Both the position numbers and the translations under genes were made by a program. From Candidatus Altarchaeum sp. (GTDB lineage: Archaea; Altiarchaeota; Altiarchaeia; Altiarchaeales; Altiarchaeaceae), in NCBI GenBank assembly GCA_018260755.1, contig JAGTWP010000004.1:1-42297 (forward strand): a stretch of DNA of 42,297 nucleotides, written 5' to 3'. The notes under the pieces were generated by a model. It saw only the letters and a program-made list of their open reading frames with translations. It did not search any database and was not told where the DNA came from. Shown in pieces: positions 19,855 to 29,159 of the stretch (the first letter of the stretch is position 1; each line of letters starts with the position of its first letter).

Positions 19855-19910
19855 AATTATAAATTAATTATAAAAGATGGATGTTGAAGCACAATTAAAA
19901 AAGGACTATG
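19855..19910 (+). repeat. 56-bp direct repeat, downstream copy (start of true rrp42)
   Basis: Identical to 19639-19694. This copy continues into the intact rrp42 gene. Just before it, 19775-19835 contains several TATA-like elements (ATATATAAATATATAAA and GATATAAAAAGTATAA), which are candidates for the promoter now in use. Confidence 0.95.
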
Positions 19911-20686
19911 TTCTTAATGTTATTAAAAACAATAAAAGAATAGACGAAAGGAAATTTGATGAATACAGAAAAATTTCAATAAAGAGGGACTTTGTTGAAG
20001 GAAAGGCAGAAGGTTCCGCTTATGTAAAAATCGGAGATACAGAGGTACTTGCAGGGGTAAAAATAGATGTAGGAAATCCGTATCCTGATACACCTGACGA
20101 AGGTGTTATAACCGTCGGTGCCGAATTCAGGCCCATTGCATCTCCTTCGTTTGGTTCCGGTCCGCCTACACCAGCAGCAATAGAATTGGCGAGAGTGGTA
20201 GACAGAGGAATAAGAGAATCAAAATGTATAACAACAACACAATTAATAGTACCAAATACAGAATCCGTTGATAGTAATGGAAAGAGCACAAAAAAGATCT
20301 GGATGGTAATTATAGATATTCATATAATAAATGATGCGGGAAATTTAATAGATGCAAGTGGAATTGCTGCAATGGCTGCATTACTTGATACAAAACTTCC
20401 GAAATACGAAGATGGAAAGATAATAAGAAATGAATTTACCGGAGGACTTCCGATTACAAAGGTTGCAATTCCTGTAACATTCAGAAAGATTGATGATAAA
20501 ATTTTACTTGATCTCGATTCGGATGAAGAAACAGCAATGGATACACGATTGACAGTCACAACAACAGATATGATAAACGCAATGCAAAAAGGAGGAACCG
20601 GAAAATGGACAATAGAAGAAATAAAGCAATGTGTTGAGACCGCATTCATCAAGGCAGAAGAAATAAGAAAGATTGTAGAGGCATGA
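19877..20686 (+). CDS. rrp42: exosome complex subunit Rrp42
   Basis: Rrp42 is the non-catalytic RNase PH-like subunit that alternates with Rrp41 in the hexameric ring of the archaeal exosome (3'-5' RNA decay and tailing). The 269-residue protein has NNKRIDERKFDEYRKISI near the N-terminus, GEGKAEGS-like sequence (VEGKAEGSAYVKIGDTEVLAGVK), and PASPSFGSG-like sequence followed by ELARVVDRGIRESKCI. The RNase PH catalytic aspartates of Rrp41 are not all kept, as expected. The usual upstream partners rrp4 and rrp41 are not adjacent here. The 5' end of this gene is duplicated 216 bp upstream. Confidence 0.95.
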   Translation: MDVEAQLKKDYVLNVIKNNKRIDERKFDEYRKISIKRDFVEGKAEGSAYVKIGDTEVLAGVKIDVGNPYPDTPDEGVITVGAEFRPIASPSFGSGPPTPAAIELARVVDRGIRESKCITTTQLIVPNTESVDSNGKSTKKIWMVIIDIHIINDAGNLIDASGIAAMAALLDTKLPKYEDGKIIRNEFTGGLPITKVAIPVTFRKIDDKILLDLDSDEETAMDTRLTVTTTDMINAMQKGGTGKWTIEEIKQCVETAFIKAEEIRKIVEA

Positions 20687-20848: not shown

Positions 20849-21631
20849 ATGAAAAAAGTAAGAGCAATTATACTTTCTGGCTATGGAATTAACTGTGAGA
20901 TCGAAACAGCATATACCTTTAAAAAATGCAACGCCGATGCGGAAATCGTGCACATAAACGACCTTTTAAATAAGACAAAAGACCTTATGAATTATCAGAT
21001 TCTGGTAATTCCCGGCGGATTTTCTTTTGGCGATGATATTGCAAGCGGGAAGGTTCTGGCAAACAAGCTCAAATTTAAAATAGATGAAATTTATAAATTC
21101 ATAGATGCAGGAAATTTAATAATAGGAATTTGTAACGGATTTCAGGTTCTGGTTAAGTCAGGAATACTTCCGGGAACTGCTGAGCATAAAACACAGGAAG
21201 CAACATTAACCTTTAACGATTCCGGAAAATTTGAAGACAGATGGGTTTATTTAAATGTCAATGAAAAAACGAAATGTGTGTGGACAAAAAATTTACATAA
21301 TTTGTTTCTTCCGGTCAGGCATGGCGAGGGAAAATTTTTCTGTGGGAACAAAATTTTAGAATACCTCAAAGAAAACGAACAAATAGTTATGCAATATGTT
21401 GCTCAAAACGGAAATTTTGCGGACTATCCGGACAATCCCAATGGCTCAATTGAAAATATCGCCGGAATTTGCGACAAGACAGGGCGTCTTTTCGGACTGA
21501 TGCCGCATCCGGAAGCATATAACTGTTTTGAAAATAACCCGTTGTGGAGATCCAAAAACAAGAGCGTTTTTCCGCTCGGAATTGAAATCTTCAGGAATGG
21601 AATAAAATTTGCAGAAAAAAATTTAATATAA
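20849..21631 (+). CDS. purQ: phosphoribosylformylglycinamidine synthase glutaminase subunit
   Basis: PurQ supplies ammonia from glutamine for step four of purine biosynthesis, working with PurL and PurS. The 260-residue protein is a class I glutamine amidotransferase with GGFSFGDDIASGKVLANK, the nucleophile loop GICNGFQVL, and the closing catalytic segment GLMPHPEAYNC. The length is close to that of archaeal and Gram-positive type PurQ (about 220-270). purL and purS are not in the window; purC lies at 26712-27572 on the other strand. A 10-bp hairpin lies in the leader. Confidence 0.94.
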   Translation: MKKVRAIILSGYGINCEIETAYTFKKCNADAEIVHINDLLNKTKDLMNYQILVIPGGFSFGDDIASGKVLANKLKFKIDEIYKFIDAGNLIIGICNGFQVLVKSGILPGTAEHKTQEATLTFNDSGKFEDRWVYLNVNEKTKCVWTKNLHNLFLPVRHGEGKFFCGNKILEYLKENEQIVMQYVAQNGNFADYPDNPNGSIENIAGICDKTGRLFGLMPHPEAYNCFENNPLWRSKNKSVFPLGIEIFRNGIKFAEKNLI

Positions 21632-21636
21632 AATAT

Positions 21637-22134
21637 ATGAAATTCAGAAAACCCGACAGGAATGAAATTGAATTAATAAAGGAATGCGCGACTCATTTTA
21701 AAGGACATTTTGAAACAGATAAATTTTCTTTATTTGCGGATAAATTTAATAAGGTCTTTATCTACAATGGAACACCTGCAAATTTAAATTTAAGCAATTT
21801 GAGAGCGTTGTCCATCGGATTAAATATCGGGAAATTGGCTCAAAATATATTTGTTCCCACCCGGGAATTTGCGGACTTAATTGAGCCTACCACTCATATT
21901 TTTGAAATTGAAACAAAGTTAGAAGGTGCAAATTTTATGAAGGGATGGGACATTTACCCTGTTACAAATCCTGAATGCGTTCAAGAAATGTATAAAATTT
22001 ACACAAAAAAAAAATTAAATTTTGAAGAAAATACATTAATTGCGATAAAGTATAAAGGTATGACTTTAGGGATTGGAAAATTCACGACCGGAAAAATTAT
22101 AAATAAAATTTCAAAAAGAGAAAAATTACACTAA
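21637..22134 (+). CDS. PUA-like RNA-binding protein (Nip7 / RsmF C-terminal type)
   Basis: This 165-residue protein begins with an alpha/beta segment (KPDRNEIELIKECATHFKG) and then has LRALSIGLNIGKLAQNIFVP, which resembles the L-R-x-G-L-x-L-G-E-x(4)-F-x-P segment found in Nip7-like proteins and in the C-terminal domain of RsmF-type methyltransferases. It ends in strands typical of a PUA domain (LIAIKYKGMTLGIGKF). Such proteins bind structured RNA in ribosome biogenesis. It starts 5 bp after purQ. The exact family is uncertain. Confidence 0.6.
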   Translation: MKFRKPDRNEIELIKECATHFKGHFETDKFSLFADKFNKVFIYNGTPANLNLSNLRALSIGLNIGKLAQNIFVPTREFADLIEPTTHIFEIETKLEGANFMKGWDIYPVTNPECVQEMYKIYTKKKLNFEENTLIAIKYKGMTLGIGKFTTGKIINKISKREKLH

Positions 22135-22197
22135 CTCACCTCTTTTCGTTCGGAGATTTTCAAGAAGTTGAAAATGGCAAAATGAATAACTTATTAT

Positions 22198-22323
22198 AGG
22201 ACTTACGCAGTTTTAATATAAATTATTAGGATTATATATAAATATATTAAACAGGACTTACGCAGTCCAGTATATAAAAAGGTCTTAAAATCCCTAAATT
22301 TATGTATGTTTTGCGTAAGTTCT
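22198..22323. mobile_element. MITE-like element with AGGACTTACGCAG terminal repeats
   Basis: AGGACTTACGCAG occurs at 22198-22210 and again in direct orientation at 22254-22266. The inverted form TTGCGTAAGTTCT, two mismatches from the exact complement, is at 22311-22323. Ends of the type GGACTTACGCA are terminal repeats of known insertion sequences. The element has no coding capacity, so it is a non-autonomous remnant. The arrangement suggests one element inserted in or deleted against another. A 28-bp internal stretch matches 252-279 beside the transposase remnant with one mismatch. Confidence 0.7.
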
Positions 22324-22354
22324 ATTTAATTCCTTTATTTTTTATTTCTTAAAT

Positions 22355-25300
22355 TTATTCGTATCTCTTTACATTTATTTTGTTTTCTTCTGCCTTCTTT
22401 GCTGTTTCATCATTAGAAGTTAATAGGTCAACATTTAGTTGTTTTGCTCTTGCAACATGCTCATCGCCGCATTCTTTTAAGTAATTTTCGCCTTTTTCAT
22501 CTAAATCCACAAATTCAAATTTATTCTTTACTCTATTTTCTACATCCATTCCTTGTATGTTGTCATAAACCTTCCTTGAGACATAAATTTTGCTGTATTT
22601 ACTAGATATGTTTTCAAGTTGTTCTTCTTTAATTGCTTTATTTATGGATTCTTCATCTGCATAAATTTTCTTCTTTCTTAATAAGAGGAAAAGCAAAAGT
22701 GCTATTAATAACAATAATAGCAATAATATCCAGCAAGGCAATCCGAATATATTACATTCAGGACATGTCGTTTTACAAGTTGCTGTCCCTTCTTCACATC
22801 CGCATTTGCATTCCTTTGGACAAATAATTTCTACTGTTGTAATTTTACTTGTTGCAGTATCTGAATCCTTATATCCTTTTTTACTTGCTGCTGCTGTGAC
22901 ATCTCCTTCAATTTGTGTTTCGTTTGTGCAGACCTTTCCGTTTGCATCAGAAATTAATTGTATTTCTTTTCCACCTGGCATTGTAAGTTTAACATTTGCA
23001 CCTTCAACATTATTTCCATCCTGATCTTTTACATAACAACATAATGTTTCATTTACATTAACTTGTGGAGCACATGTTACTGTTAGTTTCGGCATTACAA
23101 TTGTTCCGGTTAATGTCTCATTTTCATAGCAGTCCTTTTGTGCAGTTAATGTATAACTTCCTTCTTTTTCTCCTACATTAAATGTTATTTTTCCCTCAAA
23201 ATCAGATGTTTTTACTATATTTCCATCCGGTAATACAATACTTACCTTTGCACCTTTAACTGCATTTCCGCCGTCATCTTTTATAATGTATGTTAAGACA
23301 TCATTAGTCATTGCTTTTGTTAAATCAGATGGTGTTATGTAAAGTTTTCCGTAAGTCGAAGTTATTGTCTTGCTGTATTCTTCACCGCAAACTCCTTTTG
23401 GAATAGTTATTGTATAAATACCGCATCCAAAGTTATAGCAAATTTCACCATTTGCATTTGTAGAAACATTCAAGTTATTACCATTCGGAAGTGTTAACAT
23501 TATGTTAGCTGCGCTTGGTACATTCTTTGTAGTGCTTGTTGTTAATTTTCCATCTTGATATGTATTTGTGGTGCACTCCATCTTAAAGCAATGACTTCCA
23601 GGGGTTGTTATATCTGGAATTGTTGGTGAAATTTGATGAGTTGTTGTTACTTCCCCGACAGGAATTCCCTGATATTGTTGCGGACCACATGTTGTGCAAT
23701 AACCTCCTCCACTACTGCCTGGTGGAGGACATGCTCCACAATCGCCTGGGCAGGAAGAGCATGTTTCACCCTTGTTTGCTTCGCATTGTCCGTTGTTGCA
23801 GCAGACATTATTTTCATCTATTTGGTTGTTGCAGTTATCATCAATTCCATTGCAGATTTCTTCTGCTCCTATGTCAACACATGTGACAGATACATTTACA
23901 GTTGCATTTGCTGTTGCATTTACGATTGTTCCTGAATAATTGCCTGTTACATTAGCAATGTTTGTTGTTGTGCTGTTTATTGTTGTTGAACAATTGCATT
24001 CCATGATTTCATTTACCGCTAATGTTGCATTTGGACAAGTTACATTACTGCATTTGTCATCTGTAACATTTATGTTTGTTAAATTTACATTTCCTGTGTT
24101 TGTTACATTGTAATAATAGGTTACACTTCCACCTCCTGCTGGCAATGTTGTTGGATTTGCTGTTTTAACTAGGGTTATATTTGGACACGCAACAAAAACA
24201 GTTGCATTTGTCGTTGCATTTACAATACTTCCTGAATAATTACCTGTTACTTTAGCAATATTTGTTACATTTCCACATTGTGTCAAGGTTGTTGAACAAT
24301 TGCATATCGTGCTTTCATTTACTACCAATGTTGCATTTGGACAGATAACAGAACTGCATCTGTCATCCGTAACATTTATATTGCTTAATGGAACATTTCC
24401 TGTATTTGTTACATTGTAATAATAGGTTACACTTCCACCTCCTGCTGGTAATGAATAATTACTTGCAGTTTTGTTTAAACTTATATTTGGGTTTACAGGC
24501 GTTACATTTACAGTTGCATTTGCACAACTATCTATTCCTGCCCCTTCTGATGAAACTGCACAAGCTATATTTGTAGTAGTATTATACAAAGGAGTGGTAA
24601 AGTTACATGTCTTACTTTCATTAACATTTAATGTAGATATTATACAGACAAATCCCAATTTGTCATCAAAAACTCTGACATTTGTAAGATTTACTCCACC
24701 AGTATTAGTAACATTATAGATATAGTTAACTAATTCTCCATATACTATACTTGTGGCATTTGGTGTCTTAGTAATTAATATATTTGGACACACTGGACAA
24801 GACGGCATAACATTGACAGTTGCATTTGCTGTTGCATTTACGATTGTTCCCGAATAATTACCTGTTACATTAGCAATATTTGTTGTTGTGATGTTTATTG
24901 TTGTTGAATAATTGCACATCATGCTTTCTCCTACTGCAAGTTGTGTTGCAGAACAATTTATTGCTCCGAGTTTATCATCACTTAACGAGATATTTGTTAA
25001 ATTTACATTTCCTGTGTTTGTTACAATGTAATAGTAAGTCACATTTCTTTCACTCATATTCAAACATGTCGGATTTGCTATTTTAATTAAAGATATATTT
25101 GGCTGTGCGGGTGATGCTATGGGCACTGTCACATTTGCACCTGGAACCCCTGGACCACCTCCAAATAGGGGTTGTAATCCATAAAATCCTGTAACATTTG
25201 CGATATTTGTTTCATTATCTGTTACTGTTTTTGTACAATTACACTTCATTGATTCGCTAACGCTAAGATTATTCTTTGGACAATTTACAGTAGGGCATTT

Positions 25301-26482
25301 ATCATCGCTAACTGTTATGTTACTTAATGGAACATTTCCCGTGTTTGTTACATTATAATAATAAGTTACATTTCCTCCGCCAACAGGTAATGTTGTTTGA
25401 TTCGCTGTTTTAATTAAAGTTATGTTTGGGTTTGCAGAGGTTACATTTACTATTACAGTTGCGTTTGCTGTTGCATTTAAGATTGTTCCTGGATAATTAC
25501 CTGTTACATTAGCAATATTTGTTACTGATTCATTTACGAACATTGAACAATTGCACATCATGCTTCCATTTATCGCCAATGTTGTTTTCGGACAAGTTAC
25601 ATTACTGCATTTGTCATCTGTAACAGTTATGTTTGTTAAATTTACCGGATTATTCAATGTGAAATTTCCCTGTTGAGTTTTTTCAACTGGTGATGAAACT
25701 GTTTTAACCGTAATTGTATCATTATATAATCCCGGATCCATTTCCGTAGTTAGCATATATGTGATTACATTGTAATAGTAAGTTACATTTCCTCCACCTG
25801 CTGATAATGAATAATTACTTGCTGTTTTATTTAAGGATATATTTACCTGTCCGCACGTATTGATTTTAATAGTATAATTCAATATTCCGCTGTTACAGTA
25901 ACCGTAGCCATAGCCATTATATCCGTATCCGTAGCCATATCCGTATCCGTAGCCATATCCGTATCCGTAGCCATATCCGTATCCGTAGCCATATCCGTAT
26001 CCGTAACCATAGCCATTTGTATAACCATATCCGTAACCATAATCATAATTACCGCAGAAACCTGTAAGAGTTACATTTACATAAATAATTTTTCCACTAC
26101 AATTATAATAGGGATTAAAATAATGACCTGTTGTAGATAAATTACTATCTAATGGCAAAGAACAATTCATAAAGATTCCATCGGAAGGATTTAAAATTTT
26201 TAAAGTAACATCAGTTACACGATCAGTACTTATATTTACAACTGCATTCAAAGTAATATTATCTGTACACATAGTATAATTATTATTTATACTATAATTT
26301 TCACTTCCAGGAGGCATATCCTTAAGATGGTTGAAATTTATCACAACATCACTGATAATCGGATTCCATAACAAACCTCCGATAATTACAGCAGTCAAAA
26401 TAAATGCAAAATATTTATTCATATTATTTTTAGTTCCCATGTCTGCTTTATTTGTTCCCTCTTTTTGAGAATTGTCGCTCAT
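22355..26482 (-). CDS. giant surface protein: DUF11 repeats, Gly-Tyr tract, Ig-like domains, membrane span, PIN-like tail
   Basis: A 1375-residue cell-surface protein. An N-terminal hydrophobic segment (FAFILTAVIIGGLLW) is the signal or signal anchor; Met21 (26422) is an alternative start. Residues about 144-195 are a Gly-Tyr tract. Residues about 205-866 hold six DUF11-type repeats (KTAN-x-TTLPAGGG, then YYYNVTNTGNV), dense in NxS/T sequons. About 868-920 is a Cys-rich EICNGIDDNCNNQIDE-type calcium-binding motif, then a Gly/Pro linker, then about three Ig-like or carboxypeptidase-regulatory-like units to 1240, ending in a Cys cluster. A membrane span lies at about 1246-1268. The 103-residue tail (1273-1375) reads like a PIN domain, with D1276, D1340 and D1358. 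It is probably an S-layer or surface-filament glycoprotein. Confidence 0.88.
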   Translation of the reverse strand: MSDNSQKEGTNKADMGTKNNMNKYFAFILTAVIIGGLLWNPIISDVVINFNHLKDMPPGSENYSINNNYTMCTDNITLNAVVNISTDRVTDVTLKILNPSDGIFMNCSLPLDSNLSTTGHYFNPYYNCSGKIIYVNVTLTGFCGNYDYGYGYGYTNGYGYGYGYGYGYGYGYGYGYGYGYGYGYGYGYNGYGYGYCNSGILNYTIKINTCGQVNISLNKTASNYSLSAGGGNVTYYYNVITYMLTTEMDPGLYNDTITVKTVSSPVEKTQQGNFTLNNPVNLTNITVTDDKCSNVTCPKTTLAINGSMMCNCSMFVNESVTNIANVTGNYPGTILNATANATVIVNVTSANPNITLIKTANQTTLPVGGGNVTYYYNVTNTGNVPLSNITVSDDKCPTVNCPKNNLSVSESMKCNCTKTVTDNETNIANVTGFYGLQPLFGGGPGVPGANVTVPIASPAQPNISLIKIANPTCLNMSERNVTYYYIVTNTGNVNLTNISLSDDKLGAINCSATQLAVGESMMCNYSTTINITTTNIANVTGNYSGTIVNATANATVNVMPSCPVCPNILITKTPNATSIVYGELVNYIYNVTNTGGVNLTNVRVFDDKLGFVCIISTLNVNESKTCNFTTPLYNTTTNIACAVSSEGAGIDSCANATVNVTPVNPNISLNKTASNYSLPAGGGSVTYYYNVTNTGNVPLSNINVTDDRCSSVICPNATLVVNESTICNCSTTLTQCGNVTNIAKVTGNYSGSIVNATTNATVFVACPNITLVKTANPTTLPAGGGSVTYYYNVTNTGNVNLTNINVTDDKCSNVTCPNATLAVNEIMECNCSTTINSTTTNIANVTGNYSGTIVNATANATVNVSVTCVDIGAEEICNGIDDNCNNQIDENNVCCNNGQCEANKGETCSSCPGDCGACPPPGSSGGGYCTTCGPQQYQGIPVGEVTTTHQISPTIPDITTPGSHCFKMECTTNTYQDGKLTTSTTKNVPSAANIMLTLPNGNNLNVSTNANGEICYNFGCGIYTITIPKGVCGEEYSKTITSTYGKLYITPSDLTKAMTNDVLTYIIKDDGGNAVKGAKVSIVLPDGNIVKTSDFEGKITFNVGEKEGSYTLTAQKDCYENETLTGTIVMPKLTVTCAPQVNVNETLCCYVKDQDGNNVEGANVKLTMPGGKEIQLISDANGKVCTNETQIEGDVTAAASKKGYKDSDTATSKITTVEIICPKECKCGCEEGTATCKTTCPECNIFGLPCWILLLLLLLIALLLFLLLRKKKIYADEESINKAIKEEQLENISSKYSKIYVSRKVYDNIQGMDVENRVKNKFEFVDLDEKGENYLKECGDEHVARAKQLNVDLLTSNDETAKKAEENKINVKRYE
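25921..26010 (-). repeat. five 18-bp tandem repeats coding the Gly-Tyr tract
   Basis: On the + strand the unit ATCCGTATCCGTAGCCAT occurs at 25921, 25939, 25957 and 25975, with a fifth copy at 25993 differing by one base. Each unit encodes six residues alternating Gly and Tyr. The wider tract with degenerate copies spans about 25898-26050. The period is a multiple of three, so gain or loss of units keeps the reading frame. Confidence 0.95.
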
Positions 26483-26563
26483 TTTACTTGGTTTAAATTT
26501 AAATTTATAAAAATTTTTTAAAATATTATAATAATTACATCTATAATTAAATAAATAAATAAA

Positions 26564-26604
26564 TTTTTTAAGTTTATATTATTGTCTTTTTTAAGTTTAT
26601 ATTA
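26564..26604 (-). promoter_or_regulatory. 18-bp direct repeat upstream of the giant surface gene
   Basis: TTTTTTAAGTTTATATTA occurs at 26564-26581 and 26587-26604. Read on the - strand each copy contains TAATATAAACTTAAAAAA, a good TATA-like element. The pair lies about 80-120 bp before the start codon at 26482, in a 229-bp spacer otherwise made of ATTAAATAAATA-type low-complexity sequence. Confidence 0.45.
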
Positions 26605-26711
26605 TAATAAACCGTTTATTAATTAATTTTGGATATTAAATAAATATTAAATAAATTGCATTAAATAAATAAATAAATATTAAATAAATAATTAAAGATT
26701 AAATAAATAAA

Positions 26712-27572
26712 TTAAAAATTTTTTCCAGTAATTCTTTCATACATTTCGGCATACAAATCCTCAACCTTCCTTATCATTTCATCAGATAAAGGCGGAATTA
26801 ACGGTTCGCTTAAATTTTTCTCCCTTTGTGCATAAAGAAAGTCCCTGTAACTAAATTTCTCACCACACTTCGGGCAAACATAAAATAAATTTTCATAATA
26901 CTGCCTGACAAATTCCTTGCTTAATTCAACGAAATTTCCCTTTTTATATTCTTCCGCATCCCAAAACCTGTCCTCATCAGGCGTTCCGAATGTATCAATA
27001 AGCAAAATTTCCCCGTCCAGAATCCCGAATTCCTTCTTTCCGTCAACATGGATTAAATTTCTCTTTCCTGCCTGGTTTTTAATTACATCATCTATCTTCA
27101 ATATAATTTCCTTAATATTTTCCAAATCAATCTTCTTTAACTTTGAAATTTCTAATACCTCTTCTTCTGTGAGTAATCTGTCGTATTTCTCAAATTTTGT
27201 CGTGATTTCAAAGATCGGCTCGCTAAATTTCTCACCGTATGTTCCTTTATGCTTTTTGTAATAAGAGCCGGCATTATAATGCCTTACTATAAATTCAAGC
27301 GGAATTACTTCTGTCTTTTTAACAAGCATCTCGTCGGACTTTGCCTTGTTCTTGCCGTCTGAAACATATTGGGTTTTACAAATTCCTTTTTTCTCAATCC
27401 TGTCAAACCAGAATTTTGCAATTCTGCATAAAACCTCACCCTTAACAGTAATCTCACTTGGAATTATCTGGTCAAACACAGATATTCTGTTTGAAAATTT
27501 AAATTTCAGCAAATGAGTATTAATTTCGTAAATATCCTTGACTTTTCCGCTTTTTAAAAATTTTTCGGACAT
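26712..27572 (-). CDS. purC: SAICAR synthetase
   Basis: PurC joins aspartate to CAIR in purine biosynthesis. The 286-residue protein has SGKVKDIYE at the ATP-binding N-terminus, ISVFDQIIPSEI, PLEFIVRHYNAGSYYK, and the late motif LIDTFGTPDEDRFWDAEEY. The C-terminal region includes a single CPKCGEKF segment, then PPLSDEMIRKVEDLYAEMYERITG, the usual closing helix. It lies 26 nt after a short T-rich stretch and is read toward the surface-protein gene. With purQ at 20849 it is one of two isolated pur genes here. Confidence 0.95.
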   Translation of the reverse strand: MSEKFLKSGKVKDIYEINTHLLKFKFSNRISVFDQIIPSEITVKGEVLCRIAKFWFDRIEKKGICKTQYVSDGKNKAKSDEMLVKKTEVIPLEFIVRHYNAGSYYKKHKGTYGEKFSEPIFEITTKFEKYDRLLTEEEVLEISKLKKIDLENIKEIILKIDDVIKNQAGKRNLIHVDGKKEFGILDGEILLIDTFGTPDEDRFWDAEEYKKGNFVELSKEFVRQYYENLFYVCPKCGEKFSYRDFLYAQREKNLSEPLIPPLSDEMIRKVEDLYAEMYERITGKNF

Positions 27573-27640
27573 TTTTTAAATTTCTTTTTTATTTCTTTTT
27601 TAAATTTATTGCTTTTTATTTCTTCTTTATTTTTTCTTCT

Positions 27641-28114
27641 TTATTTCTTTTTTATGACAACAACATCCCCCAATGTAAGCACATCCTTTGATTTATCAAT
27701 TTTCAGAAGCACAACTCTTTCTCGCTTTTTTATTAAATTTATATTTAAAAATTGCTCAATCTTTTCTATAACCGCTATCGGAGGAACAAACCCGGATTCT
27801 ATTCTTTTTACATAAGCAACAGGCTCATTTATGTGTTTTGCAAAATCCTCCTGCTTTAAATTTTTCTTTTCCCGAATATCCTTTATTTTATGGCTAAAAT
27901 TTTCAACAATTTCATATTCCGGCTCTCCGAGAACAGTTGCAGGGGAAATTTCTTTGTCTGCGTTGTCCTGCTTTTTCTTTTCAGCAACCTGTTCTCGGAC
28001 ATCTCCGATAATCCTTCCGTTAACTGCACACTCATCACAAACGATTACAGGTGCGCCCATAAACATAATTTTTTTTCCCTGTTTTATTTGTGCTCCGCAT
28101 AATTCGCATTTCAT
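27641..28114 (-). CDS. archaeal multiprotein bridging factor aMBF1
   Basis: aMBF1 is a conserved archaeal factor with a zinc ribbon and a Cro/C1-type helix-turn-helix, thought to act in transcription or at the ribosome. The 157-residue protein starts with CELCGAQIKQG and a second pair in CDECA, forming the zinc site. After a charged linker, the helix-turn-helix covers about residues 75-130 (IREKKNLKQEDFAKHINEPV and VKRIESGFVPP). The last part has LTLGDVVVIKKK. It lies 68 bp upstream of purC on the - strand and is divergent from GMP synthase. Confidence 0.93.
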   Translation of the reverse strand: MKCELCGAQIKQGKKIMFMGAPVIVCDECAVNGRIIGDVREQVAEKKKQDNADKEISPATVLGEPEYEIVENFSHKIKDIREKKNLKQEDFAKHINEPVAYVKRIESGFVPPIAVIEKIEQFLNINLIKKRERVVLLKIDKSKDVLTLGDVVVIKKK

Positions 28115-28241
28115 TTTTGGGTTTTTGAAATTTTTCTAAAAATATAAATTTAATTAAGTTTGTATTTTAATTAAGTTAGTATTTAAATTTTAATTTAAAT
28201 TCAATTAAATATCTTACTCATTATGTGAAAAAAAATTTAAA
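28115..28241. promoter_or_regulatory. divergent promoter region between aMBF1 and GMP synthase subunit B
   Basis: This 127-bp spacer must hold both promoters. It contains a near-repeat, TTTAATTAAGTTTGTATTTT followed by TTAATTAAGTTAGTATTT, about 20 bp apart. No Shine-Dalgarno motif precedes either start codon. Confidence 0.45.
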
Positions 28242-29159
28242 ATGTTTGATGCAGAAAAGTTCATTAAAAATGCAATTGAGGAAACAAAAGAAACAGTCGC
28301 TGGAACGACAATAATTGCATTATCAGGGGGTGTTGATTCATCAACCTGTGCAATGCTCGTCGGCAGGGCAATCGGAAAAAATTTGGTTTGTGTGTTTGTT
28401 GATAATGGCTTTATGAGAAAGAACGAGCCGGAAAGAATCAGGGAAATTTTTGAAACAAAAGTAAAATTTGAATTTGCCGATGCGAGTGAAAGATTTTTTG
28501 ATGCATTAAAAGGTATCACAGACCCGGAAGAAAAGAGAAAAATTATTGCAAGGACATATATTGAAATTTTTAACGAATACGCAGAAAAATATAATGCAAA
28601 ATTTCTGGTTCAGGGAACTATAGCACCTGACTGGATTGAAACAAAGGGAAATATAAAAAGCCATCATAATGTTGCATTGCCTTCCGGAATGACACTTGAA
28701 ATTTACGAACCGCTGAAGGATTTGTATAAAAACGAGGTCAGACAGGTTGCAAGAGCCCTTGGACTTTCCGAAGAAATTTCCGAAAGAATGCCGTTTCCCG
28801 GACCAGGACTGGCGATAAGGGTTTTAGGAGAAGTAACAAAGGAGAAGGTAGAAATTGTCAAAGAAGCGGATGCAATTGTCAGAGAAGAAATTTCAAACGC
28901 AAATTTAAAGGTCTGGCAGGCATTTGCCGTTTTACTTGAGGGAAAGACAACAGGAGTAAAAGGAGATAAACGGGATTACGGATACATGCTCGCTGTAAGA
29001 ATTGTTGAATCAACGGATGCAATGACTGCAAACGCAATGAATGTCAAATGGGAAATTTTGCAAAAAATAACAAGCAGAATAACAACGGAAATTTCCAATG
29101 TTACAAGGGTTTTGTATGATTTAACTAGCAAACCGCCTGCGACGATTGAGTTTGAATGA
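28242..29159 (+). CDS. guaAB: GMP synthase ATP-pyrophosphatase subunit (subunit B)
   Basis: In many archaea GMP synthase is split into a glutaminase (subunit A) and this ATP-pyrophosphatase subunit, which adenylates XMP for amination to GMP. The 305-residue protein has the P-loop SGGVDSSTCAMLV, FVDNGFMRKNEPERI, QGTIAPDWIET, and the C-terminal dimerisation domain with MPFPGPGLAIRVLGEV and a late DLTSKPPATIEFE tail, which is diagnostic for the family. Subunit A is not adjacent. Confidence 0.95.
   Translation: MFDAEKFIKNAIEETKETVAGTTIIALSGGVDSSTCAMLVGRAIGKNLVCVFVDNGFMRKNEPERIREIFETKVKFEFADASERFFDALKGITDPEEKRKIIARTYIEIFNEYAEKYNAKFLVQGTIAPDWIETKGNIKSHHNVALPSGMTLEIYEPLKDLYKNEVRQVARALGLSEEISERMPFPGPGLAIRVLGEVTKEKVEIVKEADAIVREEISNANLKVWQAFAVLLEGKTTGVKGDKRDYGYMLAVRIVESTDAMTANAMNVKWEILQKITSRITTEISNVTRVLYDLTSKPPATIEFE

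What the first reader, a model, noticed from the sequence alone, without database searches (positions are those of the whole stretch)
22358..22745. PIN-like domain on the cytoplasmic side of a giant surface protein
The 1375-residue surface protein has a single late membrane span (about residues 1246-1268). The next 103 residues run from an IYADEES strand through YVSRKVYDNIQG to a final GDEHVARAKQ, LLTSNDETAKKAE and INVKRYE. This order and the acidic positions D1276, D1340 and D1358 match a PIN-type nuclease fold. A nuclease-like domain tethered beneath a heavily decorated extracellular filament or S-layer protein is unusual. It could couple surface state to RNA turnover, or be an inactivated PIN fold used as a binding module.
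Basis: partly seen in the sequence, partly recalled or inferred. Interest (0 to 1): 0.65.

Follow-up and report, generated by a model that had tools for sequence, protein, structure and literature searches.

The report
Nuclease-like inner tail on archaeal surface proteins
A giant surface protein of the archaeon Altiarchaeum ends, beneath its membrane anchor, in a small domain folded like a PIN RNA-cutting enzyme but lacking part of the cutting site; the same worn-out domain recurs under large surface proteins in several archaeal lineages, which suggests a shared inner foot or docking part rather than an active nuclease.

Summary
ORF 22355-26482 (-, 1375 aa) has one late membrane span (about residues 1246-1268), then RKKK and a 107-residue tail. 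AlphaFold2 folds the tail with pLDDT 94.9; nearly all the best structural matches are PIN domains. Profile comparison with free-standing archaeal PINs scores 69.8 against at most 19.0 in 100 shuffles. The genome belongs to the Candidatus Altiarchaeum group.

The fusion is not a one-off. The tail recurs behind a membrane span at the C-terminus of surface proteins across Altiarchaeia, and also in a Korarchaeum-like phylum, Archaeoglobaceae and Methanocaldococcus.

The nuclease reading is weak. D1276 and D1340 fill two acidic PIN positions, but the motif-2 glutamate is N1308 and the motif-4 aspartate is N1357 (D1358 is one residue off). Across tethered tails, motif 2 is acidic in 5 of 38 clusters and Lys/Arg in 22; in free PINs it is acidic in 22 of 24.

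Most likely it is a cytoplasmic pseudo-PIN module acting as a docking or assembly foot for surface proteins. The fold is well supported, loss of catalysis probable, the docking role inferred.

The parts
22355..26482 (-). Whole gene: 1375-aa giant surface protein
   Evidence: ORF; six DUF7507/DUF11-type repeats, CarboxypepD_reg
26339..26413 (-). N-terminal hydrophobic segment (residues about 24-48), signal peptide or signal anchor
   Evidence: Hydropathy
22763..26338 (-). Ectodomain (residues about 49-1240): DUF7507/DUF11 repeats, MopE-like motif, CarboxypepD_reg, 84 sequons
22679..22747 (-). Single late membrane span (residues about 1246-1268)
   Evidence: Hydropathy; followed by RKKK, positive inside
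22358..22678 (-). PIN-like cytoplasmic tail (residues 1269-1375)
   Evidence: AF2 pLDDT 94.9; fold search; hhalign with shuffled controls
22655..22657 (-). D1276, PIN motif-1 Asp (kept)
   Evidence: Alignment A3
22559..22561 (-). N1308, at the PIN motif-2 Glu position (acid lost)
22463..22465 (-). D1340, PIN motif-3 Asp, at the start of a helix (kept)
   Evidence: (alignment to 1o4w)
22412..22414 (-). N1357, at the PIN motif-4 Asp position; D1358 is the next residue
   Evidence: Alignment to 1o4w

Best explanation
The tail is a degenerate PIN-fold domain (a pseudo-nuclease) held on the cytoplasmic face of the membrane at the end of a large, probably glycosylated surface protein. It is one member of an archaeal family of membrane-tethered PIN-like tails fused to varied ectodomains. 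Most likely it does not cut RNA. It serves as a cytoplasmic foot that docks the surface protein to partners, possibly through PIN-PIN pairing, and so anchors, clusters or registers the surface protein. Shown here by computation: fold, homology to PINs, recurrence, loss of the motif-2 acid, purifying selection. Inferred: cytoplasmic side, lack of activity, docking role.
For: Fold. Homology to free-standing archaeal PINs with shuffled controls. Pfam PIN matches 4 of 19 members, best E 3.5e-4. Recurrence behind a span at the C-terminus in 15 of 29 Altiarchaeia genomes plus one contig-edge fragment (my reading), in 15 of 29 genomes of a second phylum (a span upstream in nearly all loci examined), in Archaeoglobaceae and in Methanocaldococcus. 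Ectodomains differ (DUF11/DUF7507, beta-helix/NosD, fn3, Ig-like) while the tail stays. Motif-2 acid kept in 5/38 tethered against 22/24 free clusters, Fisher p 5e-10; Lys/Arg in 22/38 against 0/24. Tail under purifying selection, dN/dS 0.15-0.30. Several copies per genome: six in G023, five in G026. PIN tails also come in twos: tandem in one Altiarchaeales protein and in an overlapping gene pair in Archaeoglobaceae. No toxin-antitoxin partner beside the gene: the same-strand neighbour is a SAICAR synthetase gene.
Against: D1276 and D1340 stay conserved, and two tandem copies in one relative keep D, E and D, so some members may still bind metal or be active. The tandem model has pTM 0.57, so no defined PIN-PIN contact was shown. 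In the M. jannaschii-size genome the two-span partner lacks a PIN tail, so pairing is not obligatory there. Altiarchaeum has two membranes (PMC4460559); which one holds this span is untested. No experiment exists.
Confidence: 0.5

Rival explanations
1. A working or conditionally working membrane-tethered RNase. The tail, alone or completed by a second PIN domain as SMG5 completes SMG6, cuts RNA near the membrane in response to surface state.
For: D1276 and D1340 conserved; two tandem PIN tails in L082 keep D, E and D; paired PIN tails in Archaeoglobaceae; precedent of a catalytically dead PIN completing an active one (PMC12923823).
Against: Motif-2 acid lost, mostly to Lys/Arg; motif 4 not conserved; no antitoxin or RNA-processing partner beside the window gene on its strand.
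Confidence: 0.13
2. A binding sensor: the PIN pocket, with its metal site altered by Asn or Lys, binds RNA, a nucleotide or another cytoplasmic ligand without cutting it, and passes a signal to or from the surface.
For: Pocket residues D1 and D3 kept while E2 is replaced, mostly by basic residues; in the M. jannaschii-size genome the gene cluster includes a membrane protein with a winged-helix-like cytoplasmic part (my reading of the sequence).
Against: No ligand known; no signalling gene beside the window copy; several copies per genome on varied ectodomains look more structural.
Confidence: 0.2
3. A passive folded plug: a compact domain that stops the chain from being pulled through the membrane and fixes topology, with no specific partner.
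For: Nearly always last, right after the span and a basic cluster.
Against: Purifying selection and near-invariant residues; a plug would not need one fold kept across phyla; another large surface protein of the clade ends in the span plus a few residues (L099 ends ...KMFKKK), so no folded tail is needed for anchoring as such.
Confidence: 0.15
4. Not PIN: another three-layer alpha/beta domain that resembles PIN by convergence.
For: Foldseek E-values are only 1e-3 to 1e-2 and no Pfam model covers the window tail itself.
Against: Structural top ranks filled by PIN domains, Pfam PIN found in four relatives, hhalign far above shuffles.
Confidence: 0.02

Closest known systems
PIN domain (PF01850) and free-standing archaeal DUF3368-type PINs
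   Same: Fold, order of elements, motif-1 and motif-3 acids, hydrophobic core pattern; profile match
   Different: Tethered behind a membrane span at the C-terminus; motif-2 Glu lost, motif 4 not kept; about 105 residues, without the DUF3368 C-terminal part; no antitoxin partner
AF0591 / Fcf1-Utp24-like PINs (1o4w)
   Same: Weak profile match over profile positions 13-103; GD...TND-like motif pattern
   Different: AF0591 is a soluble, free-standing domain with TND where the window has TSN
SMG5 PIN domain (pseudo-PIN completing SMG6)
   Same: A PIN fold without its full catalytic set, working through a partner PIN (PMC12923823)
   Different: Eukaryotic, soluble, NMD; no sign of common descent beyond the PIN fold was tested here
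Membrane-linked PIN-TRAM (YacL-type) proteins
   Same: PIN domain joined to membrane spans (from general knowledge; the TTHA0540 structure 3ix7 is among the matches)
   Different: From general knowledge: several spans, no large ectodomain, and a TRAM domain
Altiarchaeal hami and other archaeal S-layer-like proteins
   Same: Same organism group; large secreted repeat proteins. [quoted passage not shown]
   Different: The published hamus subunit is described as a 97-kDa soluble protein with an N-terminal span only; no link to this tail is shown

Membership tests
PIN-like superfamily (fold) | Three-layer alpha/beta/alpha PIN core with the PIN order of elements | tested here: met
   VIA-align Z up to 10.4, PIN entries fill the top ranks
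PIN-like superfamily (fold) | Sequence homology to PIN families | tested here: met
   hhalign 97.6% with shuffled controls; Pfam PIN in 4 of 19 relatives; the window tail alone does not reach any Pfam cut-off
Catalytic PIN nucleases | Three to four conserved acids (D, E, D, D) | tested here: not met
   D1276 and D1340 present; motif 2 is N1308 and motif 4 is N1357; family-wide loss of the motif-2 acid
Catalytic PIN nucleases | Metal-dependent nuclease activity | not testable with these tools
   Needs a biochemical assay
VapBC toxin-antitoxin | Small free PIN toxin encoded next to an antitoxin | tested here: not met
   Tail of a 1375-aa membrane protein; same-strand neighbour is a SAICAR synthetase gene, other side convergent
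DUF3368 (PF11848) | DUF3368 C-terminal region | tested here: not met
   No PF11848 match in the window tail or the relatives listed; free-standing PIN relatives do match
Hamus subunit of Altiarchaeum | Identity or homology to the published hamus protein | not tested
   Hamus sequence not at hand; published features differ (PMC4460559)

The most novel reading that the evidence does not exclude
An archaeal class of membrane-tethered pseudo-PIN tails that forms a common cytoplasmic interface for surface proteins, linking S-layer-like or hook-like structures to the inside of the cell by PIN-PIN pairing or by binding RNA.
Probability: 0.25. Interest if true: 0.8.

Novelty: new variant of a known kind. 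Interest (0 to 1): 0.55.

Why it matters
Little is known about what archaeal surface proteins do on the inside of the membrane. It also warns against annotating such tails as RNases or toxins.

Tried and rejected
Pfam on the tail alone gave no significant family; only relatives gave Pfam PIN. PDB sequence search gave weak matches, PIN structures among them but also unrelated proteins. Folding the tandem PIN tails to look for a PIN-PIN contact gave two well-folded domains but pTM 0.57, so the test was inconclusive. A domain tree of tethered and free PINs: one origin of the tethered tails is neither shown nor rejected (p-AU 0.254). No phage homologue. Literature: no paper in the held library joins Altiarchaeum with PIN domain or archaea, surface proteins, C-terminal transmembrane and PIN domain; the PIN superfamily classification paper I looked for by DOI is not held, so prior mention there cannot be excluded. 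PF11848 search of the own genome rang in no control genome, so it shows nothing.

Full report
What was checked. The finding concerns the C-terminal end of a 1375-aa ORF at 22355-26482 on the minus strand. The ORF is there. Hydropathy shows an N-terminal hydrophobic segment and a single late span, with RKKK after it; D1276, D1340 and D1358 are as stated. The ectodomain carries six DUF7507/DUF11-type repeats and a CarboxypepD_reg domain and 84 N-x-S/T sequons against 1 in the tail. The window is a whole contig of a 1.32-Mb archaeal genome; the closest named relatives are Candidatus Altarchaeum/Altiarchaeum genomes.

The fold. Nine tails from the window and from fetched relatives were aligned and the window tail was predicted: mean pLDDT 94.9, pTM 0.86, elements in the PIN order. 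Foldseek's best PDB matches are PIN proteins such as 1y82, 1o4w, VapC4 and 2mdt, at modest E-values. VIA-align gives Z up to 10.4 with PIN entries (VapC, FitB, RNA-free RNase P, Nob1) filling the top ranks. By sequence, Pfam PIN matches four of nineteen family members, best E 3.5e-4, and a PDB profile search gives weak matches that include 2mdt, 1o4w and 3ix7. An independent test compared the window family with fourteen free-standing archaeal PINs: hhalign probability 97.6, score 69.8, against at most 19.0 in 100 column shuffles and 12.4 for the reversed alignment; the wider family scored 91.5. Of three of those free PINs scanned, two match DUF3368 above its cut-off and the third matches PIN just below it.

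Distribution. With a profile of the tail, 19 of 29 Altiarchaeia genomes have a match at E 0.001 or better. By my reading of the ORFs, 15 of them carry it at the C-terminus of a protein with a span just upstream and one more shows it on a contig-edge fragment; the remaining matches are free PINs or doubtful. Hosts of the tail range from about 550 to 3357 aa where the frame is not cut by a contig end. The window's genome has a second copy, at the end of an ORF of at least 1341 aa on another contig. One Altiarchaeales protein carries two tails in tandem. The names for these genomes rest on contig lengths and memory, not on labels. Ectodomains differ between hosts: DUF11, beta-helix/NosD, fn3, Ig-like. 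A domain tree neither shows nor rejects a single origin (p-AU 0.254).

Active site. PIN nucleases need three to four acids (established knowledge). In the window tail, motif 1 is D1276 and motif 3 is D1340. The motif-2 glutamate is N1308. The alignment to AF0591 (1o4w) places N1357, not D1358, at motif 4. Over the family, after clustering at 60% identity, the motif-2 residue is acidic in 5 of 38 tethered clusters and Lys or Arg in 22; in free PINs found by the same profile it is acidic in 22 of 24 and Lys or Arg in none (Fisher p 5e-10; at 40% clustering 3/24 against 17/19, p 4e-7). Five tethered ORFs were classed by hand, because the span is split off, weak or lies further upstream. Motif 3 shifts in register between subgroups, so its counts are less firm.

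Constraint. Between the window and its closest relatives dN/dS of the tail is 0.15-0.30. Against L077 the tail has dS 0.24 while the adjoining ectodomain has dS 1.03, which suggests that tails are exchanged or homogenised between paralogues.

How it probably works. The basic cluster after the span, the drop in sequons and the same layout in archaea with one membrane put the tail in the cytoplasm (inference). With motif 2 lost and often replaced by a basic residue, catalysis is unlikely in most members. A folded domain kept by selection at the end of varied surface proteins is best read as a docking or assembly foot. PIN domains often pair (established knowledge), and the tandem copies and the gene pair in Archaeoglobaceae fit pairing, but the tandem model did not fix a contact (pTM 0.57) and the two-span partner in the M. 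jannaschii-size genome has no PIN tail. A composite nuclease, as in SMG5-SMG6 (PMC12923823), and a ligand sensor remain open. Perras et al. [quoted passage not shown] Altiarchaeum (PMC4460559); a link to this tail is speculation.

Novelty. The fold is known; its use as a recurrent, apparently inactive cytoplasmic tail of archaeal surface proteins is not covered by the Pfam or NCBIfam models searched, and no held paper was found that describes it. The main PIN classification paper could not be read, so this is a new variant as far as could be tested.

Noticed in passing
L204:1921-4093 (minus); also L151, L153, L157, L171, L174: Archaeoglobaceae carry an overlapping gene pair: a ~180-aa protein with two spans and a PIN-like tail, and a ~420-544-aa ectodomain protein with one span and a PIN-like tail.
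   Followed up: partly
L197:1444-4354: In the M. jannaschii-size genome the homologous surface protein is followed by an 86-aa two-span protein that stops where the PIN tail would begin, then by a membrane protein with a winged-helix-like C-terminal part.
   Followed up: partly
L082:7998-8666: Two PIN-like tails in tandem at the end of one Altiarchaeales surface protein, both keeping D, E and D at motifs 1-3.
   Followed up: partly
L077 against window 22358-26482: Tail dS is about a quarter of ectodomain dS, which suggests gene conversion or exchange of tails between paralogues.
   Followed up: partly
window 25883-26050 (approximate): Long Gly-Tyr (GYGYGY) repeat inside the ectodomain of the surface protein.
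   Followed up: no
window 19877-20686: RNase PH-domain protein (exosome-like subunit) about 1.7 kb from the finding, on the other strand; probably unrelated.
   Followed up: no
window 20849-29159: The surface protein gene sits among purine-pathway genes (glutamine amidotransferase, SAICAR synthetase, GMP synthase C-terminal).
   Followed up: no
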